Below, piece after piece: positions 8,231-44,004 of a DNA stretch of 64,000 nucleotides (position 1 is its first letter; each line of letters starts with the position of its first letter). Origin of the DNA: Streptomyces sp. NBC_00878 (GTDB taxonomy: Bacteria > Actinomycetota > Actinomycetes > Streptomycetales > Streptomycetaceae); assembly GCF_026341515.1 (NCBI RefSeq), contig NZ_JAPEOK010000001.1, positions 5,456,001-5,520,000 on the forward strand, read 5' to 3'. The translations under genes were made by a program, and so were the position numbers. The notes below the pieces were generated by a model, which was given only the letters and a program-made list of their open reading frames with translations, ran no database searches and was not told where the DNA came from.

Positions 8231-8325
8231 CGGCTCGGCTGCGGGGTGGTGGGGGCTGGTCGCGCCCATGCGGCGGAGCCGCAGAATGTGACAGCCCCCC
8301 CGCCCCCGCCCCCCCCAAAAAAGCT

Positions 8326-8372
8326 GCGCAGTTCCCCGCGCCCCCATTTTTTGGGGGCGCGGGGAACTGCGC
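8326..8372. terminator. Perfect 20-bp stem-loop (interspersed Streptomyces hairpin repeat)
   Basis: The arm GCGCAGTTCCCCGCGCCCCC (8326-8345) pairs perfectly with 8353-8372 around a 7-base loop. It lies between the convergent ends of bkdC and the DD-peptidase gene and can serve as a bidirectional terminator. The same hairpin family recurs near 31222, 59940-60055 and 63205-63265, so it is also a dispersed repeat. The flank 8250-8295 (GGCGGAGCCGCAGAATGTGACAG) belongs to the same family. Confidence 0.8.
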
Positions 8373-8421
8373 GACCAGCCACACACGGCCCGCGGGCGAA
8401 CACCCTCGCGGAGCGACTCGC

Positions 8422-29259: not shown

Positions 29260-31023
29260 ATGCATCGGTACAGGTCCCACACCTGCGGCGAGCTCCGCGC
29301 CTCTGACGTCGGCAGCGACGTCCGGCTGAGCGGCTGGCTGCACAATCGCCGAGACCTGGGCGGCATCCTCTTCATCGATCTGCGCGACCACTACGGCATC
29401 ACGCAGCTCGTCGCCCGCCCCGGCACCCCCGCGTACGAGGCCCTGGACAAGCTCTCCAAGGAGTCCACGGTCCGCATCGACGGCAAGGTCGTCTCACGCG
29501 GCACGGAGAACGTGAACGCGGAGCTGCCGACCGGTGAGATCGAGGTCGAGGTGAGCGAGGTCGAGCTGCTCGGTGCGGCCGCCCCCCTCCCCTTCACGAT
29601 CAACACCGAGGACGGGGTCAACGAGGAGCGGCGCCTGGAGTACCGCTTCCTGGACCTGCGCCGCGAGCGCATGCACCGCAACATCCTGCTGCGTACGTCG
29701 GTCATCTCGGCCATCCGTCACAAGATGACGGCGCTGGGCTTCAACGAGATGGCGACGCCGATCCTGAGCGCCACCTCCCCGGAGGGCGCGCGTGACTTCG
29801 TCGTCCCGTCCCGCCTGAACCCGGGCAGGTTCTACGCCCTCCCCCAGGCACCGCAGCAGTTCAAGCAGCTGCTGATGATCTCCGGCTTCGACCGGTACTT
29901 CCAGATCGCGCCCTGCTTCCGTGACGAGGACGCGCGCGCGGACCGTTCGCCGGGCGAGTTCTACCAGCTCGACGTGGAGATGTCCTTCGTCGAGCAGGAG
30001 GACGTGTTCCAGCCCATCGAGAAGCTCATGACCGAGCTGTTCGAGGAGTTCGGCAAGGGCCGTCATGTGACGTCCCCGTTCCCGCGCATCCCGTTCCGCG
30101 AGGCGATGCTGAAGTACGGCTCCGACAAGCCGGACCTGCGGGCCCAGCTGGAGCTCGTCGACATCACGGACGTCTTCGAGGGCTCGGAGTTCAAGGCATT
30201 CGCGGGCAAGCACGTACGCGCCCTCGCGGTGCCGGACGTGTCCGCGCAGCCGCGGAAGTTCTTCGACCAGCTCGGTGACTACGCGGTCTCGCAGGGTGCG
30301 AAGGGCCTGGCCTGGGTGCGGGTGGCCGAGGACGGTTCGCTGACGGGCCCGATCGCCAAGTTCCTGACCGAGGAGAACGTCGCCGAGCTGACCAAGCGCC
30401 TGTCGCTGGCCGCCGGTCACGCCGTCTTCTTCGGCGCGGGCGAGTTCGACGAGGTCTCGAAGATCATGGGCGCGGTGCGGGTCGAGACCGCCAAGCGTGC
30501 CGGGCACTTCGAGGAGAACGTCTTCCGCTTCTGCTGGATCATCGACTTCCCGATGTACGAGAAGGACGAGGACACCGGGAAGATCGACTTCTCGCACAAC
30601 CCGTTCTCGATGCCGCAGGGCGGTCTGGAGGCCCTGGAGACCCAGGACCCGCTGGACATCCTCGGCTGGCAGTACGACATCGTCTGCAACGGCGTCGAGC
30701 TGTCCTCCGGCGCCATCCGGAACCACGAGCCGGACATCATGCTCAAGGCTTTCGAGATCGCTGGCTACGACCGCGAGACCGTCGAGGAGCAGTTCGCGGG
30801 CATGCTCCGCGCTTTCCGCTTCGGCGCCCCGCCGCACGGCGGTATCGCCCCGGGCGTCGACCGCATCGTCATGCTCCTCGCCGACGAGCCGAACATCCGG
30901 GAGACCATCGCGTTCCCGCTGAACGGCAACGCGCAGGACCTGATGATGGGCGCGCCGACGGAGCTGGACGAGACGCGGCTGCGTGAGCTGCACCTTTCGG
31001 TGCGCAAGCCGCAGCCGAAGTAG
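29260..31023 (+). CDS. aspS: Aspartate--tRNA ligase
   Basis: 587 residues, normal for bacterial AspRS. The N-terminal OB-fold anticodon domain (about 1-110) has [19 protein letters not shown]. Class II motifs follow: motif 2 [19 protein letters not shown] and motif 3 [14 protein letters not shown], with the bacterial GAD insertion between them. The segment [13 protein letters not shown] is typical. Because of bacterial origin it may be discriminating or non-discriminating; GatCAB genes are not in the window. ATG 29260; the ribosome binding site is weak. Confidence 0.97.
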
Positions 31024-31135
31024 GGCCCTGCGGGCCCCGCTCTCAGGTCTGGCTCTCGGGTCCGGTTCTTGGGTCCGGTTCTTGGGTCCGGTATGCGGGT
31101 CCGGCTTGTGGGTCCGGCTCTCGGGTCGGGCCCGC
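31023..31135. repeat. Short hairpin plus 14-bp imperfect tandem repeats after aspS
   Basis: GGGCCC-TGC-GGGCCC (31023-31037) lies at the aspS stop and may be a terminator. It is followed by about six imperfect units of TTCTTGGGTCCGG-like sequence. Confidence 0.65.
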
Positions 31136-31179
31136 CAAGCGCTCCGCTGAAGGGCCGTGCTTCGTCTGCGGGAGCGTTG

Positions 31180-31250
31180 TGGCTGGGCGCGCCCACGCGG
31201 CGGAGCCGCAAATGTCACAGCCCCGCGCCCCTAAAGGGGCGCGGGTCCGA
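31180..31250. repeat. Interspersed Streptomyces intergenic hairpin repeat
   Basis: The segment carries the motif GGCGCGCCCACGCGGCGGAG and a hairpin of CCCGCGCCCC and GGGGCGCGGG around TAAA (31222-31245). It matches the families at 8250-8372, 59940-60055 and 63205-63265. It lies between convergent aspS and the small gene at 31261, so it may terminate both. Confidence 0.75.
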
Positions 31251-31260
31251 CCTTGCCTTC

Positions 31261-31554
31261 TCAGCTTGGGTCGTCAACGTCCTCGCGGTCCGGCAGGGGT
31301 GGGAGTCGCAGGTCGCCCGGTACCGGGCCCTTGTCGTCCTGGCCTCGGGCGTAGCGGTGTATGCGTACCTGGAGGTTCATGCGCCGGGACTCCTTGCTGA
31401 GTCGGCGGCGCTCGCGTCGGCCGGCTTCGTCGTCATCGTCCAGTTCGTTGTACTGTCGGCGGGCCTCCCAGAAGGAACGCTCCTGGGCGGCTGCCGCCTC
31501 CCCGGGCGTGACGTCCTCCGGGTCGTCCCGGCTCCCGCCGGATTCGTCTGTCAT
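31261..31554 (-). CDS. Small charged hypothetical protein
   Basis: 97 residues, very hydrophilic. There is a central helical, highly charged stretch (ERSFWEARRQYNELDDDDEA, then GRRERRRLSKESRRM) and no signal peptide, membrane segment or recognised domain. Codon use looks genuine (high GC at third positions). The ATG at 31554 has no ribosome binding site, but CACTCT lies about 10 bases upstream, so a leaderless transcript is possible. Function unknown. Confidence 0.6.
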   Translation of the reverse strand: MTDESGGSRDDPEDVTPGEAAAAQERSFWEARRQYNELDDDDEAGRRERRRLSKESRRMNLQVRIHRYARGQDDKGPVPGDLRLPPLPDREDVDDPS

Positions 31555-31923
31555 GGGTCACAGAGTGGCACGAACCGGAGAGCACGGAGAGTGAATATCC
31601 TGGCGCCGCCATGTGGGTGACGCCGGTTCTTCGTGCGCCGTAGAGATCCGGACAGCGCGTGTGTGCCGTGCCTGTGGCCTGCCCGGGCGTGTCGGGCTGC
31701 GTCCCTGGTGGGTGCCGCCGTGCGCGGCTTGCCCTGGCAGAAAACGCGCCCTGTTTCACGCTCCTCAACTCTCCCTTGTGCGACGTCACTTACCGGCCAT
31801 TTGCCTGTTTGACGACGAAGCGTTCCGCCCCACACGCTCCTTGGGCACGCGGTCTCCCTGTTGCTCAGGGTGACTCCGGATGGGCCCCAGGCTGCCCGGG
31901 GCCGGACGAGAGGAAGACCAACG
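31555..31923 (+). promoter_or_regulatory. Upstream region of the RiPP-like operon
   Basis: No credible gene is seen in these 369 bases. TTGACG (about 31809) with CACGCT 18 bases later is a weak promoter candidate. CCCTGTTGCTCAGGG (31857-31871) and GGCCCC-N8-GGGGCC-type pairing near 31880-31902 could fold just ahead of the precursor ribosome binding site (GAGGAAG). Confidence 0.4.
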
Positions 31924-32094
31924 ATGGCCCGTAGCGCGGAAAAGCAGCAGAGGCCGGTCCGCAAGTCGCTGACCGAGCGCACCCAGGACGAGCTGGAGAT
32001 CGCAGGGTTCGACGAGGTCGAGACCCCCGAGGCGGACATCGTCAGCCTCGGCGGCGCCAGCTACACCAAGATGCTCGGCAAGATCTACGCCTGA
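31924..32094 (+). CDS. Candidate RiPP precursor peptide
   Basis: 56 residues, preceded by GAGGAAG. The N-terminal two thirds is charged, as in leader peptides (KSLTERTQDELEIAGFDEVE, about 14-33). The C-terminal part is SLGGASYTKMLGKIYA (41-56), with Tyr47 and Tyr55, Ser46, Thr48, Lys49 and Lys53 and no Cys. The GG at 43-44 is a possible cleavage point, giving a 12-residue core ASYTKMLGKIYA; that boundary is a guess. It is the first gene of the operon and is separated from the enzyme genes by a strong hairpin. I do not recognise the precursor family. The absence of Cys sets it apart from methanobactin-type MNIO substrates. Confidence 0.78.
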   Translation: MARSAEKQQRPVRKSLTERTQDELEIAGFDEVETPEADIVSLGGASYTKMLGKIYA

Positions 32095-32102
32095 CCGCTC
32101 CC

Positions 32103-32138
32103 CTCGGGGCTCCGGCGTCTGAGGCGCCGGGCCCCGAG
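32103..32138 (+). terminator. Hairpin between precursor and modification genes (candidate attenuator)
   Basis: CTCGGGGC-T-CCGGCG pairs with CGCCGG-GCCCCGAG (14 pairs, one bulge) around a 7-base loop. No T-run follows, so partial termination or mRNA stabilisation is more likely than full termination. Such hairpins commonly keep precursor mRNA in excess of enzyme mRNA in RiPP operons. Confidence 0.7.
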
Positions 32139-32170
32139 ATCCGTCGCGCCGGACCTCGGAGAGCCCGTCG

Positions 32171-32476
32171 ATGCTGCGCATCACCTCGGAACTGCCCTAC
32201 TTGGACCAGGCAGGTCACGTCTACGTGCCGCTCGTCGGACCGGCACGGTCCTGTCTGAAGCTCAACCGTCACGCGTCAGACGTCTGGCGCGAAGCGCTGC
32301 GCCGCCCCGTGGACCTCGACACGCTGCCCGAGCCGGACCGGGACTTCCTGCTCGGCTTCACCCGACGCGGCGTCCTGCACACCGAGCCCGCGTCCGAGCC
32401 ACAGCCTGAGGCCGAGCCCGCGTCAGCCTCAGGGCATGCGTCCGCGTCGGAGGGAGCGGTCGGATGGACACGCTGA
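32171..32476 (+). CDS. PqqD-like RiPP recognition element protein
   Basis: 101 residues. The first 70 match the PqqD/RRE pattern of three beta strands then helices: LRITSELPYLDQAGHVYVPL, CLKLNRHASDVWREALRR, and RDFLLGFTRRGVL. The tail is Glu/Pro/Ala/Ser-rich and disordered. RRE proteins bind the leader peptide and deliver it to the enzymes. GGAGA precedes ATG 32171. The stop lies 13 bases inside the next gene, indicating translational coupling to the radical SAM enzyme. Short length makes the family call moderate. Confidence 0.75.
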   Translation: MLRITSELPYLDQAGHVYVPLVGPARSCLKLNRHASDVWREALRRPVDLDTLPEPDRDFLLGFTRRGVLHTEPASEPQPEAEPASASGHASASEGAVGWTR

Positions 32477-34245
32477 CACGGCCGGCCATCGCCTTCGTCA
32501 ACCCCTCGGTCGGCTTCGCCGACCGTCGAAAGTCCAAGCCCATCGGGCTGGCCTACATCATGGCCTACCTGGAGAAATCCGGATTCCCCAGCTTGGGCTT
32601 CGACTTCGGGGACTCCGAGGACGACGCCGTCGAACTCGCCGCGCTCTACGGGCTCGACCGCTTCGACGTCGTCGGTTTCTCCGTCTACAACGAGTCGTTC
32701 CGCGCGGCGATCGCCATGGCCGAGTGGATCAAGAGCCGTCGACCGGAGTGCCTGATCGTCCTCGGCGGCCCGCACGCCACCGCCGTGCACGAACACATCC
32801 TGCGCCGCTACTCCTGCGTCGACGTCGTGGTCCGACGCGAGGGAGAGGAGGCCATGCTCGATCTCGTCCGAGGCCTGACCCTGAGCTCGGGCTCGGGCTC
32901 GGGCTCGGACGTGGACGTAGAGGTGGACGTAGAGGTGGACGTGGACGTGGACGTAGAGGTGGACGACCGCGCCAAGCTGACCGGGATCAAGGGCACCACC
33001 TGGCGCGCTCCCGACGGCAGCGGCCTCCTGGTCAACGAGGACCGGGACTTCGTGCCCGACCTCGACCAGATCCCGTTCCCCGACGCCGAGTTCATCTCGC
33101 ACTCCGGCTACCCCGACCTCACGTACTACGACGAGGTGCAGGGCCGGCTGAAGGCCGCGCTGACGATCTGCAGCAGCCGCAGCTGTCCGTACAACTGCTC
33201 CTTCTGCGGTGTGCTCACCATCGGCCGCAAGTACCGCTCGCGCGAGGCGGAGCGGGTCGTCGCCGAGCTGCTCCACTTCCGCGAGCGGCACGGCGTCAAC
33301 TACGAGCACGTGTACTTCAGCGACGCCAACTTCTTCGTCTCGCCGACCCGTGCCCTGGAGGTCGCCGAGGCGCTGTACGAGGCCGATCCGCAGGTCACCT
33401 TCAGTTTCGGCACCCGGGTCAACCAGATCCTCAAGGCCGCCGAGGTACTGCCCCGGCTCAAGGAACGCGGGCTGCGGTTCATCGAGCTCGGCATCGAGTC
33501 CGCCTCGGAACCGGTCCTCGAACGGCTCGCCAAGCATGTGAAGCCCGAGGTCAACGTCGCGGCCGTACGCCTGCTGAAGCGCCTGGGCATCGAGATCTCC
33601 CTCGACTTCATCATGCTGGACCCGGCCACCACTCTGCCCGACATCCGCGCCAACCTGGAGTTCCTGCGCGAGGCAGGGTTCTACGACTACGTGCCGCACG
33701 ACCACCTCTACACCGCGCTCGTCCTCTACGAGGGCACGCCGATCCGTGACTTCTACGCCCAGCGGTTCGGCGTCGTCTTCGACCCCGACGATCTGCCCAG
33801 CCCCTTCACGCTCTTCGAACTGCCCGAGGTGCAGCGGTTCAGCGACACGCTGCGGGCCTTCCGCAAGCGGTGGCAGGACCGGATCGACGGCGCCCTGGCC
33901 CAGGGGGAACTCGCGCTCGCCTCCATGGCCGACGGTTCGGACGACTGGGACTTCCCCCGTGAGCCGCACGCCCGGCTGCAACTCGACGTCGTGTCGCTGC
34001 GGCACGCGCCCAACCTCTTCATGGAACGGCTGCTGGAGGACGCCGAAGCCGGATTCCCACGGCTGAACGAGGGCGGAGACGAGGGCGGAGACAAGAGAGA
34101 AGAGGGCGGACTCGAAGCGCTGCTGCCCCGCCTGGGACACGACCACGTCCATCTGCACGACCTGATCGAACGCACCGAGGCCGTCGCGCGGGAGGCAGGC
34201 TTCGTGCAGGCCCCGGGCGCCGCCGCTCCGCACGGGAGGGACTAG
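32464..34245 (+). CDS. B12-binding radical SAM enzyme (RiPP maturase)
   Basis: 593 residues. The N-terminal Rossmann-like cobalamin-binding domain (about 8-140) contains IVLGGPHATAVHEHI. The radical SAM core carries C241-x3-C245-x2-C248 (CPYNCSFC), followed by YFSDANFFV, GLRFIELGIESASEPVLERL and SLDFIMLDPATTLPDIRANL. The C-terminal 150 residues have no recognised SPASM cysteines. Between the domains lies an acidic, repeat-coded insert of DV/EV units (about 145-168). Members of this class C-methylate, cross-link or rearrange peptides using 5'-deoxyadenosyl radical and often methylcobalamin. The context suggests action on Tyr or neighbouring residues of the precursor; the reaction is not known. 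Confidence 0.9.
   Translation: MDTLTRPAIAFVNPSVGFADRRKSKPIGLAYIMAYLEKSGFPSLGFDFGDSEDDAVELAALYGLDRFDVVGFSVYNESFRAAIAMAEWIKSRRPECLIVLGGPHATAVHEHILRRYSCVDVVVRREGEEAMLDLVRGLTLSSGSGSGSDVDVEVDVEVDVDVDVEVDDRAKLTGIKGTTWRAPDGSGLLVNEDRDFVPDLDQIPFPDAEFISHSGYPDLTYYDEVQGRLKAALTICSSRSCPYNCSFCGVLTIGRKYRSREAERVVAELLHFRERHGVNYEHVYFSDANFFVSPTRALEVAEALYEADPQVTFSFGTRVNQILKAAEVLPRLKERGLRFIELGIESASEPVLERLAKHVKPEVNVAAVRLLKRLGIEISLDFIMLDPATTLPDIRANLEFLREAGFYDYVPHDHLYTALVLYEGTPIRDFYAQRFGVVFDPDDLPSPFTLFELPEVQRFSDTLRAFRKRWQDRIDGALAQGELALASMADGSDDWDFPREPHARLQLDVVSLRHAPNLFMERLLEDAEAGFPRLNEGGDEGGDKREEGGLEALLPRLGHDHVHLHDLIERTEAVAREAGFVQAPGAAAPHGRD
32886..32967. repeat. Coding microsatellite in the radical SAM gene
   Basis: Runs of GGCTCG (SG) then GACGTGGACGTAGAGGTG-like units (DVEVDV) lie between the B12 and radical SAM domains. 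Unit lengths are multiples of three, so the frame stays open. Confidence 0.85.
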
Positions 34246-34248
34246 CGC

Positions 34249-35160
34249 ATGGCAGGCACTGGCCATATGACCACAGCAGTCAGTACAGGGTCCCCGATCC
34301 CCGAACCGGGTCCGCCCGGTGTCCACGGGATCTGCTTCAGCTGTGACTCGATCAAGGACATGGACATCGCCGAGGAGACGGCGACCAGGCTCGGTTCCAC
34401 CGCCACCTGGTACAGCGTCGGTGTCCTCGCCACGGACCAGGAACTCGCCCTGCGCTGTGCGGAGTTCTGCCGTCGGCACGGGCTGCACGCGCTGTTCCAC
34501 CCGCTGGACCTGGACGTGTGCGGCACCGACCCGCTCGACGACCGGCTGCTGCGCCTGCTCGGCGAGCGCGCCGACGAACTCAACTCGCCCTGGCTCAACA
34601 TCGACCTCGCGATGTGGGTCCGCGAGGGGGAGACCCTGCTGGAGTCGCTGGTGCCCATGCCGCTCGTCGACGAGGCCGTCGACTGGGCGGTGGACCGGAT
34701 CAAGCACGCCCAGGACGTCATCGGCCGCCCCCTGACCATCGAGAACGCGCCCTATCCGTTCGTCGTCGGCGACCGGGACATCCTCACCCTGATGACGCGG
34801 ATCGCGGAACGGGCCGACTGCCTGATGACCATCGACGTCGGCCACCTCTACGGACTGCGGGTCCAGCGCGGGCTGCCCCCGGTGCTGCCGAGCGACGACG
34901 ACATCGCCTGGGACCGGGTCGTCGAGGCGCATATGAGCGGCACGTTCGTCCGGCGCTTCGAGGGCGGCGTACGCCTTGTCGACGACAAGCACGACTGGCC
35001 GGTCAGCGACGAGGTGTGGGAACTGGCCGACGCGCTGCTCCCCCGCGCTCCCCACCTGCGGTCGGTGATGGCCGAGGCGGAGGGCATGACCGCCGACGAA
35101 CTGACCGACAGCGTACGGCGATTCGCCCGCCGGGCCGGCCACTGGTGGAGCGCCTCATGA
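34249..35160 (+). CDS. DUF692 multinuclear non-heme iron oxidase (MNIO)
   Basis: 303 residues, TIM-barrel fold related to xylose isomerase. The DUF692 metal-binding landmarks are ENAPYPF (E165, N166), TIDVGH (D196, H199), VVEAH (H228) and the hallmark DKHDWPVSDEVW (H248 with following D). LHALFHPLDLD supplies an early His. MNIOs use two or three irons and O2 for peptide modifications; MbnB forms oxazolone/thioamide, TglH removes carbon beta of Cys, and others hydroxylate or cleave side chains. Here the precursor lacks Cys, so another chemistry is expected. GGAGGG precedes ATG 34249; the next gene overlaps by ATGA and looks like its partner. Confidence 0.85.
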   Translation: MAGTGHMTTAVSTGSPIPEPGPPGVHGICFSCDSIKDMDIAEETATRLGSTATWYSVGVLATDQELALRCAEFCRRHGLHALFHPLDLDVCGTDPLDDRLLRLLGERADELNSPWLNIDLAMWVREGETLLESLVPMPLVDEAVDWAVDRIKHAQDVIGRPLTIENAPYPFVVGDRDILTLMTRIAERADCLMTIDVGHLYGLRVQRGLPPVLPSDDDIAWDRVVEAHMSGTFVRRFEGGVRLVDDKHDWPVSDEVWELADALLPRAPHLRSVMAEAEGMTADELTDSVRRFARRAGHWWSAS

Positions 35161-36071
35161 CCCGCGAAGCGACCCTCGATACCTCCGATACCTCCGATAC
35201 CCCCGATACCTTCGATGTCGGTTCAGTAGCCGCTCTCGACTACGTCCGGGTGACCGACACGACCTGGCGCATCCTCAACGCCACCCCCGGACGGCGGGCC
35301 GAACTCCTCGACGCGCTGCCCCCGGCCGAGCGGGCGGTCGTCGCCGAGGGCACCAGCGGGCCGGGCTTCGACATGGAGCAGGCCCGGCGCCGCAAGACCG
35401 TCGCCAACGTGCTGAACGTCAGCTTCCCGGTCACCTTCTTCGCGTACTACGGCCGGACCGGCGCGGACGGCCTGCACACCTTCCTGGACAGTGAGTTCTG
35501 GCAGCGGCGGCCTGCCCAGCCGGGGTCCGTGTTCCCGCCCGCGGCCACCGCGTCGGCCGCCTTCGCCGGTTTCCTGCGCGCCACCGACTGGATCGCCCGG
35601 CAGGAGGACTGGGTCGGCGAGGCTTTCGCCTTCGAGGACGCCTACCTCTTCGGCGGCATCACGGCCGACGCCCGCCCGTCCCGCGCGGGCTCCCCCGACC
35701 GCCCCCGTCTGGTGCCCGGCGCCTGGACCGCCGAGGCCGCGTTCGACGTCCCCGCGTACGGCAGGCTGCTGCGGGAGCGGGGCACGGTGGATCCGTGGAC
35801 CGAGGCGCTGCTGCTGGTCAAACGCCGTCCCGCGCCGCTCGCCGTCATCTCGGTCCCGGTCTCGGCACCGGCCGGGGAACGCGTCCGCCGGGTCCGGCTC
35901 ACGGGTGACACCGTCGCCGCGCTGCGCTGGCTGTGGGACACCGACGTACCGCTCCCCGAGGACGTCGCCACGACGCCCACCTACGCCAAGGCGCTCGGCG
36001 CCGGACTGGTGGACGGGGCGGGACTGGTGGACGGGGCGGCCGGAGTGGTGGACGGGGCCGAGCGCCAGTGA
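35157..36071 (+). CDS. Putative MNIO partner protein
   Basis: 304 residues. After a DTS-repeat head (about 6-18), the pattern NVSFPVTFFAYYGRTGADGL, FLDSEFWQRRPAQPGSVFPP, then FAGFLRA and WVGEAFAFEDAYLF resembles the helical half of the partner proteins encoded next to MNIOs (MbnC/TglI/HvfC type), which help hold the peptide substrate. The C-terminal half is beta-rich. The start overlaps the MNIO stop (ATGA), and its own stop overlaps the MFS start (GTGA), as expected for a stoichiometric partner. The C-terminus has LVDGA/VVDGA repeats. The family assignment rests on context and pattern. Confidence 0.65.
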   Translation: MTREATLDTSDTSDTPDTFDVGSVAALDYVRVTDTTWRILNATPGRRAELLDALPPAERAVVAEGTSGPGFDMEQARRRKTVANVLNVSFPVTFFAYYGRTGADGLHTFLDSEFWQRRPAQPGSVFPPAATASAAFAGFLRATDWIARQEDWVGEAFAFEDAYLFGGITADARPSRAGSPDRPRLVPGAWTAEAAFDVPAYGRLLRERGTVDPWTEALLLVKRRPAPLAVISVPVSAPAGERVRRVRLTGDTVAALRWLWDTDVPLPEDVATTPTYAKALGAGLVDGAGLVDGAAGVVDGAERQ

Positions 36072-37603
36072 CCTCTGGGACCTCTCGCGGCCCGGAACAC
36101 GAGAGCACGAGCCCCGGTCCGCCGCGCCCCGCCGACCAGGACCCAACCGACCGCGCCGACCGCGCCGACCGCGTCAACCGCGTCCGCCGCGGCTATCTGC
36201 TGGTCTCCGGTCTCGACTACTTCGCCGACATGCTCCTCACCGTCACGTCGGTCCTGCTGCTGCAGTCGCTGGGTATGGGTTCGGGCGCGGTGTTCGCCCT
36301 CATCGCCGCGGTGTGGATCGTCGAAGGGGTCTCCGAGATCCCCACCGGCGTCCTGGCCGACCTGCTGGGCCGACGCACCTCGGTCGCGATCAGCTTCGTC
36401 CTGCGGGCGGTCGGCTACAGCGCCCTGTTCTTCAGCGGCAGCGTGTACGTCGCTGCCGCCGGAGTCCTGCTCTCCGCGCTGGGCGGCACCTTCGCGTCCG
36501 GCGCCCTGGAGGCCTGGGCCGTGGACGAGACCGGGGCCAAGGACCCGCGCGGCCTGGACCGGCTCTTCGCCCAGGGAAAGATCGCCGAGAACGCGGGCCT
36601 GGTCCTGGGCACGCTGACCGGCGCCGCACTGGGCACGCTGGACCTGGCGCTGCCCCAGATCGTCGCGGGCCTGAGCTGCGCAGTGGCGGCCGTACTGTCC
36701 CTGCGGCTCATGCCCGGGCGCCCGGACCCGGACCGCCCCCCGGCCCCGGGGGATGCTGGTGGCGAATCCGCCGGGCGAAGTAATTGTCGCGTGAGTCCCA
36801 GCGACACGCCGGGTTTACGGCGTGTCGCTGGGACTCAGGGCCCACTTGCTGGAGGTCTGACGGGATTCGCCAACAGCATCCGGGGGCACCGGGAAGCCTT
36901 CGCGCCACGGCTGCGCGAATCGTTCGGCGAGGTCATGACCGGGACCCGGCTCACTCTGCGGGGCGACAAGGTGCTGATCGCCCTGATCGTCGCCGCCGCA
37001 CTCCTGTGGCTGTTCCGGGGCATCCCCGGCGTCCAGTGGACGGTGGTGTACGAGGGACTCGTCGGCGGCAATCTCCTGGTGCTCGGCGCGATGCGCAGCG
37101 TCGGCTCCCTGCTGGAGATCCCGTTGCTCGGCTGGACCCTGAGCCTGCAGAAGCGCCGGGCGTCCGCGCGCCGTACGGTCATCGTCACCGCTTCGACGGT
37201 CGGCGCCCTCGCACTCGTCTGCGCCGCCGTGGTGAAGGAACCGGCCGTCTCGGTCGTCTGCTACGTGTGCTTCTCCACGGCGTTCGGCCTGTGCATGCCC
37301 GGGGTGCGGGCGGCCATGAACGAACGGATCGAGAGCCGGCACCGCGCCACCGTTCTGTCCGTGGCCTCACTGTTCAACAGCGTGTTCACCGGTGGCGGCC
37401 TGATCCTGACCGGGCTGGCCGTCGGCGACCTCGGCAGCGCCGCCCTCGCCTGGCCGCTCGCCGCCGCCGGTTTCGGCGCCGCGGGACTGTGGGTGGCCGC
37501 CCTGGCCGTACGCCCCGGGACCGCACCGCCCACCGCCCCGCCCGCCGGACCGACCCGGCCCACGACGTCGACGACCGGGCCCCAGGAGGTGCCCACGCCA
37601 TGA
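36068..37603 (+). CDS. MFS exporter of the RiPP-like cluster, with in-frame MITE
   Basis: 511 residues. Helices 1-6 lie at about 30-215, with the MFS loop GVLADLLGRRTSVAI, and helices 7-12 at about 310-490. Between the halves, residues of about 228-271 are encoded by a 131-bp MITE-like element. The cytoplasmic loop tolerates such an insertion, and the frame stays open through it. The element carries the only TTA codon in the gene (36815-36817). GTG 36068 overlaps the previous stop by 4 bases; the stop overlaps the next start (ATGA). Probably exports the mature peptide or confers self-resistance. Whether the protein still folds is not known. Confidence 0.87.
   Translation: MTSGTSRGPEHESTSPGPPRPADQDPTDRADRADRVNRVRRGYLLVSGLDYFADMLLTVTSVLLLQSLGMGSGAVFALIAAVWIVEGVSEIPTGVLADLLGRRTSVAISFVLRAVGYSALFFSGSVYVAAAGVLLSALGGTFASGALEAWAVDETGAKDPRGLDRLFAQGKIAENAGLVLGTLTGAALGTLDLALPQIVAGLSCAVAAVLSLRLMPGRPDPDRPPAPGDAGGESAGRSNCRVSPSDTPGLRRVAGTQGPLAGGLTGFANSIRGHREAFAPRLRESFGEVMTGTRLTLRGDKVLIALIVAAALLWLFRGIPGVQWTVVYEGLVGGNLLVLGAMRSVGSLLEIPLLGWTLSLQKRRASARRTVIVTASTVGALALVCAAVVKEPAVSVVCYVCFSTAFGLCMPGVRAAMNERIESRHRATVLSVASLFNSVFTGGGLILTGLAVGDLGSAALAWPLAAAGFGAAGLWVAALAVRPGTAPPTAPPAGPTRPTTSTTGPQEVPTP
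36751..36881. mobile_element. MITE-like element, copy 2 (inside the exporter gene, reverse orientation)
   Basis: 131 bp. Terminal repeats are GGATGCTGGTGGCGAATCC and GGATTCGCCAACAGCATCC, and the inner hairpin is GAGTCCCAGCGACACGCCG with its complement. Read in reverse it differs from copy 3 at only about five of 131 bases. Flanks CCGGG and GGGGG do not form an exact 5-bp duplication; CCGGGGG occurs at both element edges if the outer two bases are included. Confidence 0.88.
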
Positions 37604-39159
37604 CCGCCGCCGCGCCCGCGCCCGCGCCCGTACCTGTGCCTGTGCCTGTGCCCTGGTCCGTACCCGTGCCAGTGTCCGAACCCGTACGTGTGCCCGTACC
37701 CGTACCCGCACCCGTCGTATACGTCGAGGACCTGCTCGCGGATCTCCAGTTGGCGCGTGCCGGGCTCCCCGGCCGCGACCCGGTGCCGGCGGCACGGCGT
37801 GCCCGGGAGGCTGCCGGTGAGTTGGCCGAGATGGGCCTTACCCGGTTCGTCGCCGAGCTGCTGGGCGAGACGGAGCCCGTGCCCGCCCCCGTAGCCGTAC
37901 TCGACCTGGAGGCAGACGAGGACGGCCGACGCGCCTCGTACGGGATCTGGTGCGCCGAGGCCCGCGAGCTGACCGATGAGGTCTGGCGGTGGCTGATCGA
38001 GCGGCGCCGCGCCGCCGCCGAACTCCCTTGGTGGTGCGGCGAGTCGGCGCTCCCGCTGCCCCACGACTCCGTACGGCGGCTCGCCGAGGTGACGGCCCCG
38101 GTGCGGGACCTCTCGGAGCTCGCCGCCGCCTGGGCCCGGCCGACCGGGCTGCGCGGCAGCGCCACCGCGGAGTACAACTGGCGCTGGCTGCTGCTCGGCA
38201 AGGGGCTGCTCGGGCCGTCCGACGAAGCGCCCGGCGAAGCGTCCGGCGAAGCGTCCGACGGGGTCTCAGGTGAGGCGCTGCCTCCGTTGCCCCCGCTGAA
38301 CGAGCTCATCACCCTGCTCGTCGGGGCGGCGCGGCGGTGCGGGCTGCTGCCGCTCGCCCACCAGGTGAAGGTGTTGCGGCGCCCGAACACCCCGTCCATG
38401 GTCATGCCCGTACGGCTGCCCGGGGTCTCGTTGCTGTCCCTGCCGACCGCGGTCACTCCGGTGACGGTCCAGTACGTGCAGCACGAGCTGGCCCATCTCG
38501 CCGAGCACGCGCTGCGTCCGGCCGACGCCCCGCTCGTCGAACGGTGGACGTTCGATCCGCTGCGGTCGGAGGGCTGGGCCCTGCTGCTGGAGCACCTGGC
38601 GGGATCGACCGCGTTTCTCGCCCGGCTGGGAATCGACGAGGAGACCGCGGCAGCCCTCGCCCGCTTCTACGCCGAGGAGGAGCGCTTCAGCCGCGGGCTG
38701 ATGGCGGCCGACCTGGCACTCGACGCGGACCTCGCGGGCTGTCGTACGTCGGCCGAGGCGCTGGACGCGGCGTCGGCCGTGGCCGTCGGCACCGGACTGC
38801 GCTGGGCTCCGGAACTCCTCCTGCTGCGGCAGACCCGCGTCCTGCACTGGCGCTCCTACCTCGCGGGTTACGCCTGGCGAGATGCCGTCCGCGCCGAACT
38901 CGACGCCCGTTTCGGCGACGGCGATGACAACAACTGTGCTGAGGGCGACGGCAACAGCTGTGGTGAGGGCGACGGCAACAGCTGTGGTGAGGGCGATGGC
39001 TGGGCGGACCGGGAGGAGGCCTGGGCGCTGTTGCGGAGCGCGCTGGCCCGAACCGGGGCGGCAGGGTCCGCCGCGGGATTCCTGGACGCACTACGGGTTC
39101 CCGAGCCGACGACGCCGTACGCACCCGATCCCACGAGGAGGCCTGATGACGACGGCTGA
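37600..39159 (+). CDS. HExxH (gluzincin-like) protease-like protein of the RiPP-like cluster
   Basis: 519 residues. A Pro/Val low-complexity head (VPVPVPVPW) is followed by a helical region. The putative metal site is HELAH at 295-299 with a third ligand E324 in RSEGWALLLE, 25 residues later, as in gluzincin-type zinc peptidases (M3/M32/DUF885-like EGWA). Further insertions are GEASGEAS and a run of EGDGNSCG repeats (about 445-470). It is a candidate leader peptidase, since no other protease is in the operon. The exact family is not recognised. ATG 37600 overlaps the MFS stop, and its 3' end overlaps the next gene by 14 bases. Confidence 0.72.
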   Translation: MTAAAPAPAPVPVPVPVPWSVPVPVSEPVRVPVPVPAPVVYVEDLLADLQLARAGLPGRDPVPAARRAREAAGELAEMGLTRFVAELLGETEPVPAPVAVLDLEADEDGRRASYGIWCAEARELTDEVWRWLIERRRAAAELPWWCGESALPLPHDSVRRLAEVTAPVRDLSELAAAWARPTGLRGSATAEYNWRWLLLGKGLLGPSDEAPGEASGEASDGVSGEALPPLPPLNELITLLVGAARRCGLLPLAHQVKVLRRPNTPSMVMPVRLPGVSLLSLPTAVTPVTVQYVQHELAHLAEHALRPADAPLVERWTFDPLRSEGWALLLEHLAGSTAFLARLGIDEETAAALARFYAEEERFSRGLMAADLALDADLAGCRTSAEALDAASAVAVGTGLRWAPELLLLRQTRVLHWRSYLAGYAWRDAVRAELDARFGDGDDNNCAEGDGNSCGEGDGNSCGEGDGWADREEAWALLRSALARTGAAGSAAGFLDALRVPEPTTPYAPDPTRRPDDDG

Positions 39160-40237
39160 GACCAAGACTGAGACCAAGACTGAGACCAAGACTGAGACCA
39201 AGACTGAGACCAAGACTGAGACCAAGACTGAGAGGGTGCCCGAGAAGGCGACCGAGCCCGTGGGCACGGAGACCGCCGGGCAGCGGAACGGGCAGCAGAA
39301 CGGGCAGCGGAACGGCCAGCGGAACGGCCAGCAGGACGGCCAGCAGGACGGGCGGCAAGACGGCCAGCAGGACGGACTGCGACTGCTCTGCCGCGAGCCC
39401 CGTATCGCCGACGACCTGCCCTGGGGCGAGGCGCACGCCGTCTTCGACGCCGCGCCGGATGTCGCCGGGATCGTGTCCCGGCAGGACCTGGAGGACTGGC
39501 TGGACTGCAGCCTGCTCCACTACCCGGTGCTGAACGCGATGCGCGGCGGCACTCCGGTGCCGCCCGAGGCGCTGACCCGGGTCATGTACGTGTCCGGCGA
39601 CCCCCGAGGCGGCTACGTGGACGGGGCGAAGGTCCGCTTCCAGTTGGCCGCCGGGGCCACCGTGGTCGTACAGAACCTGCACGAGTGGCACCGCCCCGCG
39701 CAACACCTGTGCCGTCGCCTGGCACGGCTGTTCTCGGCCAAAGCGGGGGCCGTGGCGTTCTGGACACGGGCGGGGGAGGACGGTCTGCGTGTCCACCGCG
39801 ACGACGGCCACCTGTTCGTCGTGCAGATCTCCGGGACCAAGCGCTGGTATCTGTACGACACGCCGCGCGAGCCGGACGGCTGGAGCCCCGGTTACGTCGA
39901 GGACCTGGAGAGCGCCGAGACCGTGGACCTGCGGCCCGGCCAGGTGCTGTATCTGCCTGAGGGCATCGCCCACCACACACGCACCCTCGACACGGAGTCC
40001 GTGCACGTCACCGTCGCGATCCGGGAACCCCGGCTGCGGGACACGGCCGAGCTGGCCGTACGCGCCTGCCTCGCGCGCATCGCGGACCACGCGACCCTGT
40101 CCGGGACCGGCGCCGAGCGGGAGCAGACCGCCGACGAGCTGCTCACCCGGCTCGCCGACGCGCTCGGGCGCGTGGACCGCGCCGCCCTGGTCCGCGATCT
40201 GTCGCGCCGCGCCGCTCAGACGCGCGGCAGCCGTTGA
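39146..40237 (+). CDS. JmjC/cupin-type Fe(II)/2-oxoglutarate oxygenase-like protein
   Basis: 363 residues. Residues 4-30 are KTET repeats, and about 46-78 are NGQ/DGQ repeats; both are coded by 12-bp units and probably disordered. The rest is a JmjC-like (cupin_4) domain with the metal motif H217-x-D219 in RVHRDDGHLFVVQISGTKRW and a distal His in LPEGIAHHTRTL (H276 or H277). Homologues such as YcfD/ROXA hydroxylate ribosomal proteins; in RiPP pathways similar enzymes hydroxylate peptide side chains. Here it may hydroxylate the precursor. The start ATG 39146 follows GAGGAGG and lies 14 bases inside the previous gene. Last gene of the operon. Confidence 0.82.
   Translation: MTTAETKTETKTETKTETKTETKTETKTERVPEKATEPVGTETAGQRNGQQNGQRNGQRNGQQDGQQDGRQDGQQDGLRLLCREPRIADDLPWGEAHAVFDAAPDVAGIVSRQDLEDWLDCSLLHYPVLNAMRGGTPVPPEALTRVMYVSGDPRGGYVDGAKVRFQLAAGATVVVQNLHEWHRPAQHLCRRLARLFSAKAGAVAFWTRAGEDGLRVHRDDGHLFVVQISGTKRWYLYDTPREPDGWSPGYVEDLESAETVDLRPGQVLYLPEGIAHHTRTLDTESVHVTVAIREPRLRDTAELAVRACLARIADHATLSGTGAEREQTADELLTRLADALGRVDRAALVRDLSRRAAQTRGSR
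39158..39381. repeat. Two coding 12-bp microsatellites at the start of the JmjC gene
   Basis: About six units of GAGACCAAGACT (39158-39231) and about eight of CGGAACGGGCAG-like sequence (about 39283-39381) encode the KTET and NGQ/DGQ repeats. Confidence 0.88.
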
Positions 40238-40340
40238 GATCCGGGGCCTGCGAACGATTCGCGCCACGTTCCCCATGTGCACAGCAACCCACAGTCCCTG
40301 CCCACGCCCCTGACAGTCTCCTTCCCTAGCTTCCCTGTCC

Positions 40341-41354
40341 ATGACGGGAAACCAGGAAAACCAAGAAGGCCAGGGAAACCAAACGACCCAAGGGCCGAAA
40401 CACAAGCGGAACGTGACGCGCCGCAAGGTCGTCATGGCGGGTGGCGCGGCGGTTGCCGCGGTGGGCGTGGGCGCCACGGTCGCCGCGACCGCGAACGCGG
40501 GCCAGACGAGCACGACCAAGGGCAAGTCGCCGACCGCCTCCCCCACCTCCACCTCCTCGGAGACGTGCTACAAGCTCACGTCGGAGACCACCGAGGGCCC
40601 GTATTACATCGACGCGGACAAGATCCGCCAGGACATCACCGAGGACAGAGAGGGCATCCCGCTGACCCTCCGCCTCAAGGTGATCGACAACGAGACCTGC
40701 AAGCCCATCAGAAACGCGGCCGTCGACATCTGGCACTGTGACGCGCTGGGCCTCTACTCCGGCTACGAGGACTCCTCCACCGGCGGCGGTGGCGGCACTC
40801 CGCCCACCGGAACGCCCACGGATGTTCCGACCGGTACGCCGACCGGCTCCCCGCCGGAGGGTGGCGGCGGCGGTGCGGGCCACCAGGAGCCCACCGACGA
40901 CAAGCGCTACCTGCGCGGCACGTGGCGGACGGACAAGCAGGGCTTCGTCACGTTCAAGACGGTCTTCCCCGGCTGGTACCGGGGCCGTTGCGTCCACATC
41001 CACACCAAGGTGCACGTCAGCGGCACCTGGACGGACGCCGGCTACGAGGGTGGCAACACCTGCCACACAGGCCAGTTCTTCTTCGACGAGGAGTCGGTGC
41101 TCGCGTCCGCGGAGGTCGAGCCGTACTCCACGTCGACGACCGAGCGCACGACGCTCACCGAGGACACCATCTACGACCAGTCCGGCACGGCCGGCGGTCT
41201 CCTCAAGCTCAAGTACAAGAAGAACGGCATCGCGAAGGGTGTCACCGGCACCATCACGATGGGCGTCGACCCGGAGGCGACCCACGACGGCACGGACGAC
41301 GCGGTACAGCCGGGCGCTTCGGCGTCGGCTTCCGCGTCGGCTTCGGCCGGCTGA
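40341..41354 (+). CDS. Secreted intradiol ring-cleavage dioxygenase
   Basis: 337 residues. A Tat-type signal (NVTRRKVVMAGGAAVAAVGV, about 24-43) indicates folded export. The intradiol dioxygenase core has the first Tyr ligand in TTEGPYYIDAD and the Tyr/His/His set in GWYRGRCVHIHTKVH; a Gly/Pro/Thr insert splits the core at about 145-185. Members cleave catechol-type rings with Fe(III); secreted Streptomyces forms act on lignin-derived aromatics. ATG 40341 has TAGCTT upstream, suggesting a leaderless transcript. It is not obviously part of the RiPP operon. Confidence 0.88.
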   Translation: MTGNQENQEGQGNQTTQGPKHKRNVTRRKVVMAGGAAVAAVGVGATVAATANAGQTSTTKGKSPTASPTSTSSETCYKLTSETTEGPYYIDADKIRQDITEDREGIPLTLRLKVIDNETCKPIRNAAVDIWHCDALGLYSGYEDSSTGGGGGTPPTGTPTDVPTGTPTGSPPEGGGGGAGHQEPTDDKRYLRGTWRTDKQGFVTFKTVFPGWYRGRCVHIHTKVHVSGTWTDAGYEGGNTCHTGQFFFDEESVLASAEVEPYSTSTTERTTLTEDTIYDQSGTAGGLLKLKYKKNGIAKGVTGTITMGVDPEATHDGTDDAVQPGASASASASASAG

Positions 41355-42550: not shown

Positions 42551-43219
42551 ATGGACCGGTTGCTTCTCGTGGTCGCCGATCTGGTCGCCATCTCCGTCCT
42601 GACCTTCGTGGTCTACTTCCCCCGCCACCACCGCAGAGACCTGGTCGCCGCGTTCCTCGGCGTCAACGTCGGCGTGCTCGCCGTGGCGATGGTGCTCGGC
42701 TCGACATCGGTCGGGATCGGCATGGGGATGGGGCTCTTCGGGGTCCTGTCGATCATCAGGCTCCGGTCGTACGAGATCGCGCAGCACGAGATCGCGTACT
42801 ACTTCTCCGCGCTGGCCCTCGGCCTGCTGACCGGGCTGTCCGAGTCCCTCGACCTCCTCCACACCGGGCTGATGCTGCTCGTCGTGGCCACGCTCTACGC
42901 CGGCGACCACCCCCGCCTCTACCCCCGCCACCGGCAGCGGGAACTGCGCCTGGACTCCGCGTACACCGACGAGCAGGCCCTGCGCGCCCACCTCGAAGTG
43001 CTGCTGGGCGGACGGGTGCTGAACCTGTCGGTCAAGGGCATCGACCTCGTCAACGACACGACACTCGTCGAGGTCCGGTACGTAACATCCGCGTCCGCGC
43101 CCAAATCGACGTCCGCATCCGTGTCCGGGGTGGCCGCCAAGCCCGAACACGCAGGGTCCCGTACCGACGACGACCCCCGTACGGACGACTCCCGCAGCGG
43201 GCGCGGAGTGCGGGCATGA
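42551..43219 (+). CDS. DUF4956 membrane protein
   Basis: 222 residues with about four to five membrane helices (about 5-130). It shows the DUF4956 pattern MGLFGVLSIIRLRSYEIAQH then EIAYYFSALALGLL. A cytoplasmic domain of about 60 residues and a disordered tail follow. DUF4956 proteins are typically encoded beside VTC-domain polyphosphate polymerases, as here. The exact role is unknown, perhaps transport or assembly with the polymerase. Its stop overlaps the next start (ATGA). Confidence 0.83.
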   Translation: MDRLLLVVADLVAISVLTFVVYFPRHHRRDLVAAFLGVNVGVLAVAMVLGSTSVGIGMGMGLFGVLSIIRLRSYEIAQHEIAYYFSALALGLLTGLSESLDLLHTGLMLLVVATLYAGDHPRLYPRHRQRELRLDSAYTDEQALRAHLEVLLGGRVLNLSVKGIDLVNDTTLVEVRYVTSASAPKSTSASVSGVAAKPEHAGSRTDDDPRTDDSRSGRGVRA

Positions 43220-44004
43220 CAGCCCCCGACCCCGTCGCACGCGTGCTCGGCGTGCTGCCGACCATCGGGCTCGACGAACTCGTCGCGCAGGCCGGGCTGT
43301 TGACCCGGCTGGACCGCAAGTACATGTTGCCGGTCGCCGAGTTGCCCCACGTCCTGGGCGGCCTCGACGAGGACACGCGAGTCCTGGACGTGGACGGCAC
43401 ACGGGAGTTCGCATACCGGTCCGTCTACTTCGACACCCCGGAGATGGACGGGTACCTGGGCGCCGCCCGCCACCGCCGACGGCGGTTCAAGCTGCGGATC
43501 CGTACGTATCTCGACTCCGGGCGGCACTACTTCGAGGTCAAGACGCGGGGCCCGCGCGGCACCACCGTCAAACAGCGCATCCCGTACGAGGGAGACGTCC
43601 GGCGGCTCGGACCCGACGCCCGCGCGTACGCGGACACCGTGCTCGCCGAGGCCGGGATCAACTCCGGGCGCCTCCGTTTCGTACCCGCGCTGACCACGTA
43701 CTACCGGCGTACGACGCTCTTCCTCCCGGCCACCGGGAGCCGGTTGACCGTCGACACGGATCTGGTGTGGACGCTGCCCGACGGGACCGCGCTGCGGACG
43801 CCGGACCGCGCCATCGTCGAGACGAAGGCGGGCCGGGCGGGCTCGGGTGCCGACCGGCTGCTCTGGTCGCTGAAGCACCGGCCCTGTCCCGTGTCGAAGT
43901 ACGGCACGGGGCTCGCCGCCCTCCGTCCCGACCTGCCCTCCAACCGCTGGCTGCCCGTACTGCGGCGCCACTTTCCGACCGCGCTCGACGGGAGTCCCGC
44001 ATGA
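43216..44004 (+). CDS. VTC-domain polyphosphate polymerase-like protein
   Basis: 262 residues forming the VTC tunnel domain (CYTH/triphosphate-tunnel-metalloenzyme-like). Basic phosphate-binding residues are in TRLDRKYMLP, FAYRSVYFDTPEMDGYLGA, RRRFKLRIRTYLDSG, and the acidic metal ligands in YFEVKTRG and IVETKAG; the C-terminal SKYGTG is typical of VTC. It may polymerise polyphosphate from ATP; soluble bacterial VTC proteins are less studied than the yeast complex. Coupled by ATGA overlaps to both neighbours. Confidence 0.85.
   Translation: MTAPDPVARVLGVLPTIGLDELVAQAGLLTRLDRKYMLPVAELPHVLGGLDEDTRVLDVDGTREFAYRSVYFDTPEMDGYLGAARHRRRRFKLRIRTYLDSGRHYFEVKTRGPRGTTVKQRIPYEGDVRRLGPDARAYADTVLAEAGINSGRLRFVPALTTYYRRTTLFLPATGSRLTVDTDLVWTLPDGTALRTPDRAIVETKAGRAGSGADRLLWSLKHRPCPVSKYGTGLAALRPDLPSNRWLPVLRRHFPTALDGSPA

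What the first reader, a model, noticed from the sequence alone, without database searches (positions are those of the whole stretch)
31924..40237. Eight-gene RiPP-like operon pairing a MNIO (DUF692) with a B12 radical SAM enzyme, HExxH protease and JmjC oxygenase
Seen: a 56-residue small gene followed by PqqD-like, B12-binding radical SAM, DUF692, putative partner, MFS, HExxH and JmjC genes, almost all with 4-14 base overlaps, flanked by housekeeping aspS and unrelated genes. Known: each family occurs in RiPP pathways, and MNIOs act with partner proteins. My unverified recollection is that MNIO plus B12-radical SAM combinations occur in a few pathways, such as biphenomycin-like peptides with modified aromatic residues. 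Inference: this exact gene set and precursor may define an undescribed RiPP class with three oxidative enzymes acting on a Cys-free, Tyr-bearing core.
Basis: partly seen in the sequence, partly recalled or inferred. Interest (0 to 1): 0.95.

Follow-up and report, generated by a model that had tools for sequence, protein, structure and literature searches.

The report
Undescribed YTKML-core RiPP gene cluster
A Streptomyces operon very probably makes a small, oxidised peptide natural product from a short gene-encoded peptide whose tail (ASYTKMLGKIY) is almost unchanged across dozens of relatives; its product and chemistry are unknown.

Summary
In detail: eight co-directional genes at 31924-40237, and the MNIO passes PF05114 (96 bits, cut-off 25). 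The 56-aa ORF is a real precursor: 59 protein clusters match its profile, and in 62 sequences G43, A45, K49, M50 and L51 never vary, Tyr47 stays in 61 and residue 55 is aromatic in 60. Six genomes carry precursor-to-HExxH with the MNIO (JmjC in five). Two distant clusters keep precursor, PqqD-like, B12-radical SAM, MFS and HExxH genes but have two MNIO pairs, or a P450 and no MNIO seen. A ninth, divergent small gene (31261-31554) accompanies these MNIO-bearing clusters. The partner model best matches known MNIO partners; the HExxH model has the M2/M3/M32 peptidase fold, so 'protease' is reasonable but unproven. The logic resembles biphenomycin and aminopyruvatide pathways, but arginase, TldD and FHAFRF/YHxYxY cores are absent. 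Best reading: an undescribed RiPP family built on a YTKML core with swappable oxidative enzymes. Which residue each enzyme changes, and what the product does, are inferred. Eight motif strings of the precursor gave no paper in the library searched.

The parts
31924..32094 (+). Precursor peptide, 56 aa: leader with ELEIAGFDEVETPEAD, conserved tail VSLGGASYTKMLGKIYA
   Evidence: Conserved in 4 close relatives and 1 distant locus, in a fifth close relative L043 and a second distant locus L048, and in 59 protein clusters at E<=0.01; position counts
32103..32138 (+). Strong hairpin in the spacer between the precursor and the PqqD-like gene; may stabilise or attenuate the transcript (inferred)
   Evidence: A comparable hairpin folds in 7 of the 7 loci looked at (L048 was not); whole spacer z -1.93, 8 of 200 shuffles as stable; arms were cut by hand
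32171..32476 (+). PqqD-like small protein, probable leader-binding element (RRE)
   Evidence: Homologues in the 7 other precursor-bearing loci; weak PF05402 match in 2 of 8
32464..34245 (+). B12-binding radical SAM enzyme with a CPYNCSFC motif
   Evidence: PF02310 + PF04055; best NCBIfam ApyD 116 bits, far below its cut-off of 750; 52% and 54% identity in the two distant clusters
34249..35160 (+). MNIO (DUF692 / MbnB_TglH_ChrH family) oxidative enzyme
   Evidence: PF05114 96 bits; of 21 aligned rows, candidate ligands H84 D119 D196 H199 D246 H248 E276 E278 are invariant, E165 is kept in 19 and H228 in 20; own clade, support 100/99
35157..36071 (+). MNIO partner protein (predicted)
36068..37603 (+). 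MFS transporter, probable exporter or self-resistance
   Evidence: PF07690 2e-21; 39% and 38% identity in the two distant clusters
37600..39159 (+). HExxH metalloprotein with the M2/M3/M32 peptidase fold; probable maturation peptidase
39146..40237 (+). JmjC Fe(II)/2-oxoglutarate oxygenase, accessory
   Evidence: PF08007 4e-18; H217, D219, K232, H276 and H277 invariant in 5 of 5 rows (motif roles recalled); in one open frame with the HExxH gene in L043; no match in L032, L035, L048
31261..31554 (-). Divergent 97-aa gene of unknown function, probable ninth member of the cluster
   Evidence: 63-88% identical over most of its length in L031-L035 and L043, partial 68% in L037/L044; three of these places (L034, L035, L037/L044) have no aspS match beside them or were not tested for it; no match in L048 or the Frankia locus above chance level; absent in 9 of 9 relatives without the cluster; no Pfam hit

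Best explanation
The operon makes a ribosomally made, post-translationally modified peptide of an undescribed family. Shown: a conserved 56-aa precursor, MNIO, B12-radical SAM, JmjC, MFS and HExxH genes, and their recurrence together. Inferred: the leader (ELxIAGFxEVExPxAD) is held by the PqqD-like protein and by the MNIO partner. The B12-radical SAM enzyme, present in all eight precursor-bearing loci, makes the founding change on the near-invariant ASYTKML segment, most likely beta-C-methylation of Tyr47 or a C-C cross-link that includes it. The MNIO-partner pair then oxidises the same segment, and the JmjC enzyme hydroxylates a lysine (49 or 53). The M3/M32-like HExxH enzyme trims the leader, and the MFS protein exports the product. 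Confidence by step: RiPP 0.95; B12-rSAM acts on YTKML 0.7; MNIO hydroxylation within it 0.5; HExxH is a peptidase 0.6; JmjC acts on Lys 0.4.
For: Precursor family of 59 clusters; in 62 sequences G43, A45, K49, M50, L51 are invariant, Y47 kept in 61, T48 in 60, aromatic at 55 in 60. Blocks A-G in window, L031, L032, L033, L034, L043. Precursor and MNIO hits share a contig length on 8 contigs, and precursor and HExxH on 6 (my reading of the 59, 30 and 38 rows); locus tags in S. polygonati (08150/08180) and Streptomyces sp. IBSNAI002 (02230/02200) put precursor and HExxH six genes apart if tags rise in steps of 5, as in the window. Constant core in two distant clusters with exchanged oxygenases: L035 two MNIO-partner pairs plus a weak YqcI_YcgG hit, L048 a P450; one search found no MNIO match at E<=1e-10 anywhere in G313, the genome of L048. 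Partner fold. HExxH fold. HExxH-JmjC in a single frame in L043.
Against: No product or in vitro activity is known. Residue assignments rest on conservation, which also marks recognition sites (in the apy pathway a conserved Cys is needed but unmodified, PMC10635010, passages). Two precursors lacking an aromatic at 55 (P0052, P0088) share a contig length with an MNIO hit, which argues against Tyr55 as the obligatory MNIO target. In the HExxH family 4 of 25 homologues have HAxxH, P0120 and P0124 have lost metal-site residues. No JmjC match in L032, L035 and L048 although K49 and K/R53 stay conserved there. In L033 the partner gene matches in two frames, so it may be broken or misread there.
Confidence: 0.78

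Rival explanations
1. It is a member of the biphenomycin-like family: MNIO makes ortho-tyrosines, B12-rSAM joins them, JmjC and HExxH hydroxylate.
For: Same enzyme kinds and operon logic (PMC12257519, PMC12707348, passages); two aromatic residues (47 and 55) in the core.
Against: No arginase or TldD among the eight genes, no FHAFRF/FHTFMF/YHxYxY core. In the 55-row tree the MNIO clade (26 rows, 100/99) is apart from that of a YHTYTY-type cluster (4 rows, 100/100), whose MNIO is 31% identical over 188 residues and whose two matches to our rSAM are 26% and 22%. The midpoint-rooted drawing does put the YHTYTY clade on the family's side, on a branch of 0.016, and long branches meet there, so a deep link is not excluded.
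Confidence: 0.12
2. The HExxH protein is an alpha-ketoglutarate-dependent hydroxylase, not a protease, so leader removal is done by a peptidase encoded elsewhere.
For: aKG-HExxH hydroxylases occur in MNIO clusters (BpmH, PesO, PflC: PMC12257519, PMC13060819, PMC12636437, passages and sections); the catalytic Glu is Ala in 4 of 25 homologues that keep H295, H299, E302 and E324; single frame with JmjC in L043.
Confidence: 0.3
3. The peptide is a carrier: only a few C-terminal residues are oxidised and released as a small amino-acid-like metabolite (as with 3-thiaglutamate).
For: The MNIO system ApyHI acts at a C-terminal Asp (PMC10635010, passages) and TglHI on a Cys for 3-thiaglutamate (PMC10880893, search listing).
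Against: Conservation is strongest in the middle (ASYTKMLG); residue 56 has 10 different residue types in 62 sequences and one sequence ends before it; no amino-acid-adding enzyme recognised among the eight genes.
Confidence: 0.12
4. The small ORF is not a precursor but a regulatory or chaperone peptide.
For: No product known.
Against: Leader-plus-invariant-core pattern, place at the operon head, and co-occurrence with the B12-rSAM even where no MNIO is seen.
Confidence: 0.03

Closest known systems
Biphenomycin (bip/bpm/pbs) biosynthesis
   Same: Operon with short precursor, MFS, B12-rSAM, MNIO, RRE partner, JmjC and (bip/bpm) an HExxH protein
   Different: No arginase or TldD, different core (ASYTKMLGKIY), MNIO outside the YHTYTY-type clade, HExxH of M2/M3/M32-like predicted fold
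Aminopyruvatide (apy) biosynthesis
   Same: B12-rSAM whose NCBIfam model (ApyD) is our best hit; MNIO + partner; a P450 in one variant of our family
   Different: Hit is 116 bits against a 750 cut-off; window precursor has no Cys and no C-terminal Asp; no methyltransferase family hit among the eight genes; PqqD-like protein separate, not fused
Nitrilobacillin (pes) and pfl/pos clusters
   Same: MNIO together with an HExxH protein on one precursor
   Different: No asparagine-synthetase-like or nitroreductase gene here; no B12-rSAM among the genes those papers list (passages read)
M2/M3/M32 peptidases (ACE, oligoendopeptidase F, carboxypeptidase Taq)
   Same: Predicted fold and HExxH...E metal site of gene G
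   Different: About 10% identity, activity untested, catalytic Glu lost in some relatives

Membership tests
RiPP biosynthetic gene cluster | Short gene-encoded precursor with conserved leader and core next to modifying enzymes | tested here: met
   co-location
RiPP biosynthetic gene cluster | Enzymes modify the precursor | not testable with these tools
   Needs expression and mass spectrometry
MNIO (PF05114) | Family profile and iron-ligand residues | tested here: met
   96 bits, cut-off 25; ligand positions counted, mapped to the PbsC ligands named in PMC12257519 by order and spacing, which is inference
MNIO partner protein (MbnC/TglI/DUF2063 type) | Partner fold | tested here: met
Biphenomycin-like | FHAFRF, FHTFMF or YHxYxY core | tested here: not met
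   0 of 62 precursors as listed
Biphenomycin-like | MNIO in the same clade as biphenomycin-like MNIOs | tested here: inconclusive
   Separate well-supported clades, but only one comparison cluster had its YHTYTY precursor seen, no BipE or PbsC sequence was at hand, and deep joins of the tree are unsure
Biphenomycin-like | Arginase and TldD-type protease in the operon | tested here: not met
   No such family hit among the eight genes; arginase is absent from the published FHTFMF and YHxYxY clusters too
Aminopyruvatide-like | B12-rSAM passes the ApyD model; precursor with CBX2-3G motif and C-terminal Asp | tested here: not met
   116 bits against 750; window precursor has no Cys and ends in Ala
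M2/M3/M32 metallopeptidase | Fold and HExxH...E metal site | tested here: met
   (window protein; some relatives have lost site residues)
M2/M3/M32 metallopeptidase | Peptidase activity | not testable with these tools
   Needs assay
alpha-KG HExxH hydroxylase (IPR026337) | Family profile or fold | tested here: inconclusive
   The only NCBIfam hit for 9 members is an unrelated chance-level one; none appeared among the listed solved matches; whether the family is represented in those sets was not checked

The most novel reading that the evidence does not exclude
This is an example of a distinct, undescribed RiPP class: one near-invariant core (ASYTKMLG[K/R]x[Y/W/F]) with a fixed B12-radical SAM / PqqD-like / HExxH / MFS kit, a divergent small companion gene, and interchangeable oxidative modules (MNIO + JmjC, tandem MNIOs, P450), matured by an M3/M32-like peptidase, giving a modified Tyr-Thr-Lys-Met scaffold with chemistry not yet reported.
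Probability: 0.65. Interest if true: 0.72.

Novelty: new variant of a known kind. Interest (0 to 1): 0.62.

Why it matters
The reactions of MNIO enzymes cannot at present be predicted from sequence (stated in PMC13060819, passages). A family with an almost fixed peptide substrate and naturally swapped oxygenases (MNIO, tandem MNIO, P450, with and without JmjC) is a ready comparison set: nearly the same core is offered to different enzyme sets, so each enzyme's job can be read by difference. It also puts an M3/M32-like HExxH protein in the maturation slot that TldD fills in biphenomycin clusters, and one of its nearest characterised analogues by gene content makes potent antibiotics (biphenomycins, PMC12707348).

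Tried and rejected
Filing it as biphenomycin-like: not done, because the core motif, arginase and TldD do not fit and the MNIO clade is separate as far as the tree can be read.

Filing the HExxH protein as an aKG-HExxH hydroxylase by analogy with BipH: held as a rival only, because the model has the M2/M3/M32 peptidase fold. No known aKG-HExxH structure appeared in the rows shown there, which does not exclude it.

MNIO acts on the C-terminal aromatic residue: weakened, because P0052 (...GKINN) and P0088 (...GKTAS) share contig lengths with MNIO hits P0010 and P0023. Weak hint the other way: L048, the one precursor-bearing locus without an MNIO match, is also the only one of 62 with Val48; n = 1.

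MNIO relatives on plasmids: 225 records, all below 60% identity and none with one place covering 80% of the query; rSAM: 7 records, 24.6-28.7% identity. Rfam: 0 hits in 31000-41000. PADLOC: of 4 proteins only the rSAM has a hit, PDC-M51A at 3e-11. MAFFT of the spacer aligned the distant L035 badly, so no covariation count was made. Synonymous differences in the precursor among close relatives are too few for a dN/dS test (0-5 in 44 codons), and one pair (window/L031) has 2 non-synonymous and 0 synonymous.

Rarity: precursor found in 3 of 392 Streptomyces genomes (own included), 1 of 396 of the phylum (own only), 1 of 61 relatives (own only), 3 of 355 of the family (own, plus two whose 3.2 kb are identical to L033 and L034). 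These draws overlap.

Literature: searches; the lists were capped (12 of 17, 25 of 148, 10 of 19, 9 of 14, 10 of 21 papers shown). Exact strings (YTKMLG, ASYTKM, KMLGKIY, YTKMLGK; EVETPEAD, SLGSASYT, IVSLGGAS, VVSLGSAS) gave 0 papers; supplements and most subscription papers are not searched.
Full report
What is there. The window lies in a Streptomyces chromosome (G000:C1:5456001-5520000, 11.1 Mb assembly). Eight genes run on the + strand between aspS (29260-31023) and an ORF at 40341. Pfam and NCBIfam confirm a B12-binding radical SAM enzyme, an MNIO (PF05114, 96 bits against a cut-off of 25), an MFS transporter and a JmjC oxygenase; the precursor, the PqqD-like protein, the partner and the HExxH protein have no family hit above cut-off.

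The precursor is real. It is 87-95% identical in S. phaeochromogenes NRRL B-1248 (L031), S. beigongshangae (L032), S. tauricus (L033), Wenjunlia vitaminophila (L034) and an unnamed Streptomyces (L043), and its C-terminal part is kept in Streptomyces sp. WM6378 (L035). A profile search found 59 homologous small proteins at E<=0.01. Across 62 sequences (59 hits, window, L035, L048; some nearly the same), Gly43, Ala45, Lys49, Met50 and Leu51 are invariant; Tyr47 and Gly52 are kept in 61, Thr48 in 60, Ser46 in 58; residue 53 is Lys or Arg in all; residue 55 is Tyr, Trp or Phe in 60. The leader consensus is ELxIAGFxEVExPxAD. Exceptions: P0037 has Cys47, P0052 and P0088 lack the aromatic at 55, P0056 has Ser52, P0044 has Ala48, L048 has Val48.

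Gene content. tblastn of the eight proteins against the loci shows A to G in the window, L031, L032, L033, L034 and L043, and H in all of these but L032. In L033 the partner matches in two frames (residues 1-129 and 119-288), so it may be frame-shifted or misread. Five of these six (window, L031, L032, L033, L043) share aspS next door; W. vitaminophila does not, which suggests transfer or relocation. In L043 the HExxH and JmjC matches lie in one open frame, a likely fusion.

Two distant clusters matter most. L035 keeps precursor, PqqD-like protein (38%), rSAM (52%), MFS (39%) and HExxH (27%) and has two MNIO-partner pairs plus a protein with a sub-threshold YqcI_YcgG hit (22.7 bits, cut-off 27), with no JmjC match. 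L048 keeps precursor (ASYVKMLGRTWTAT), PqqD-like protein (44%), rSAM (54%), MFS (38%) and HExxH (32%) but shows no MNIO, partner or JmjC match in the 18 kb held, and one search found no MNIO match at E<=1e-10 in that genome (G313, 99% complete, about 700 contigs). A P450 follows there (best solved match E 5e-17; no Pfam hit) and runs off the contig, so further genes could lie beyond. L037 (S. netropsis; L044 is a contig of the same length) has two MNIO matches (residues 146-291 and 17-230), partners, HExxH and MFS without precursor or rSAM matches, apparently a remnant. L036/L042 (Frankia) have only MNIO and partner.

A ninth gene. A divergent 97-aa ORF at 31261-31554 (-) is 63-88% identical over most of its length in L031-L035 and L043 and 68% over 53 residues beside the S. 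netropsis remnant (L037/L044). It has only chance-level matches in L048 and the Frankia locus. It was absent in 9 of 9 other genomes searched, none with the precursor in earlier searches, and has no Pfam hit. In L034, which has no aspS match, and in L035 it still stands by the cluster, so it is probably part of it. Its function is unknown; invariant residues sit in an Arg-rich stretch and in GPV..DL.LPPLP.

Independent linkage. Contig lengths in the protein tables coincide for precursor and MNIO on 8 contigs and for precursor and HExxH on 6 (my reading; equal length is strong but indirect evidence). In S. polygonati the locus tags of precursor and HExxH are 08150 and 08180, in Streptomyces sp. 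IBSNAI002 02230 and 02200; with a step of 5 this is six genes apart, as in the window.

MNIO clade. In a 55-row tree the family forms one clade of 26 rows (100/99). Three other unnamed Streptomyces MNIOs (L015, L018, and L017 = L050) form a separate clade (100/100); L050 encodes a precursor ending GAAYHTYTYIAAENTEDIPE, which fits the YHxYxY class of PMC12257519. In the midpoint-rooted drawing that clade lies on the family's side, and the tree warns of long branches that meet, so deep joins should not be read. Our rSAM is 26% and 22% identical to its two matches in L050.

How it most likely works: see Best explanation. The B12-rSAM is the constant chemistry. Precedents, all from passages read: ApyD beta-methylates Tyr (PMC10635010); PbsB and BipD cross-link ortho-tyrosines (PMC12257519, PMC12707348); MNIOs hydroxylate aromatic rings (PMC12257519) and Asp (PMC13060819), and homocitrulline (PMC13174530, abstract). 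BipG, a JmjC enzyme, hydroxylates ornithine (PMC12707348), hence the guess of a lysine target here. These are analogies, not tests.

Regulatory feature. A strong hairpin lies between precursor and PqqD-like gene in the 7 loci examined (L048 not examined). The shuffles used hand-cut hairpins and so overstate the signal; the whole 76-base window spacer is only mildly unusual (8 of 200 shuffles as stable).

Novelty. Eight exact core and leader strings occur in no paper of the library, and the searches for MNIO with JmjC, HExxH, B12-rSAM and the named strains listed the bip, pbs, apy, pes, pfl and std systems but not this one, in lists that were capped. Supplements were not searched. The enzyme families are known; the precursor family, the constant kit, the divergent companion and the swapped oxygenases are, as far as searched, new. 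I rate it a new variant of a known kind.

Noticed in passing
L050 (G068:C1), precursor near 5624, MNIO near 8162-8707: A YHTYTY-core cluster with an MNIO and two matches to our B12-rSAM, fitting the YHxYxY class of PMC12257519, in an unnamed Streptomyces; closely related MNIOs in L015 and L018.
   Followed up: partly
window 32907-39375: Many short tandem repeats inside the operon's coding genes (e.g. 39156-39233 and 39277-39375 in the JmjC gene, 38920-39000 in the HExxH gene, 32907-32965 in the rSAM gene), giving low-complexity stretches that vary between relatives; similar arrays occur elsewhere in the window.
   Followed up: partly
L037 / L044, about 8.3-14.2 kb (L037): S. netropsis locus looks like a decayed relative: two partial MNIO matches with partners, HExxH and MFS without precursor or rSAM, while a precursor of another S. 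netropsis record exists (P0071).
   Followed up: partly
L036 4760-6598: Frankia sp. CIT1 has the MNIO and partner alone, with no precursor profile hit; a different use of the same MNIO subfamily.
   Followed up: no
P0120, P0123-P0127: HExxH homologues with altered metal or catalytic residues; their contig lengths do not recur in the precursor list, so they may belong to another pathway.
   Followed up: no
L033 11005-11854: The MNIO partner of S. tauricus matches in two overlapping frames, so it may be frame-shifted or a sequencing error.
   Followed up: no
window 31031-31131: 13-base tandem array (7.8 copies) between aspS and the operon.
   Followed up: no
window 42551-45881: Three co-directional ORFs (42551, 43216, 43767) downstream that by eye look like a membrane protein, a VTC-like protein and a large repetitive exported protein; not tested.
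   Followed up: no
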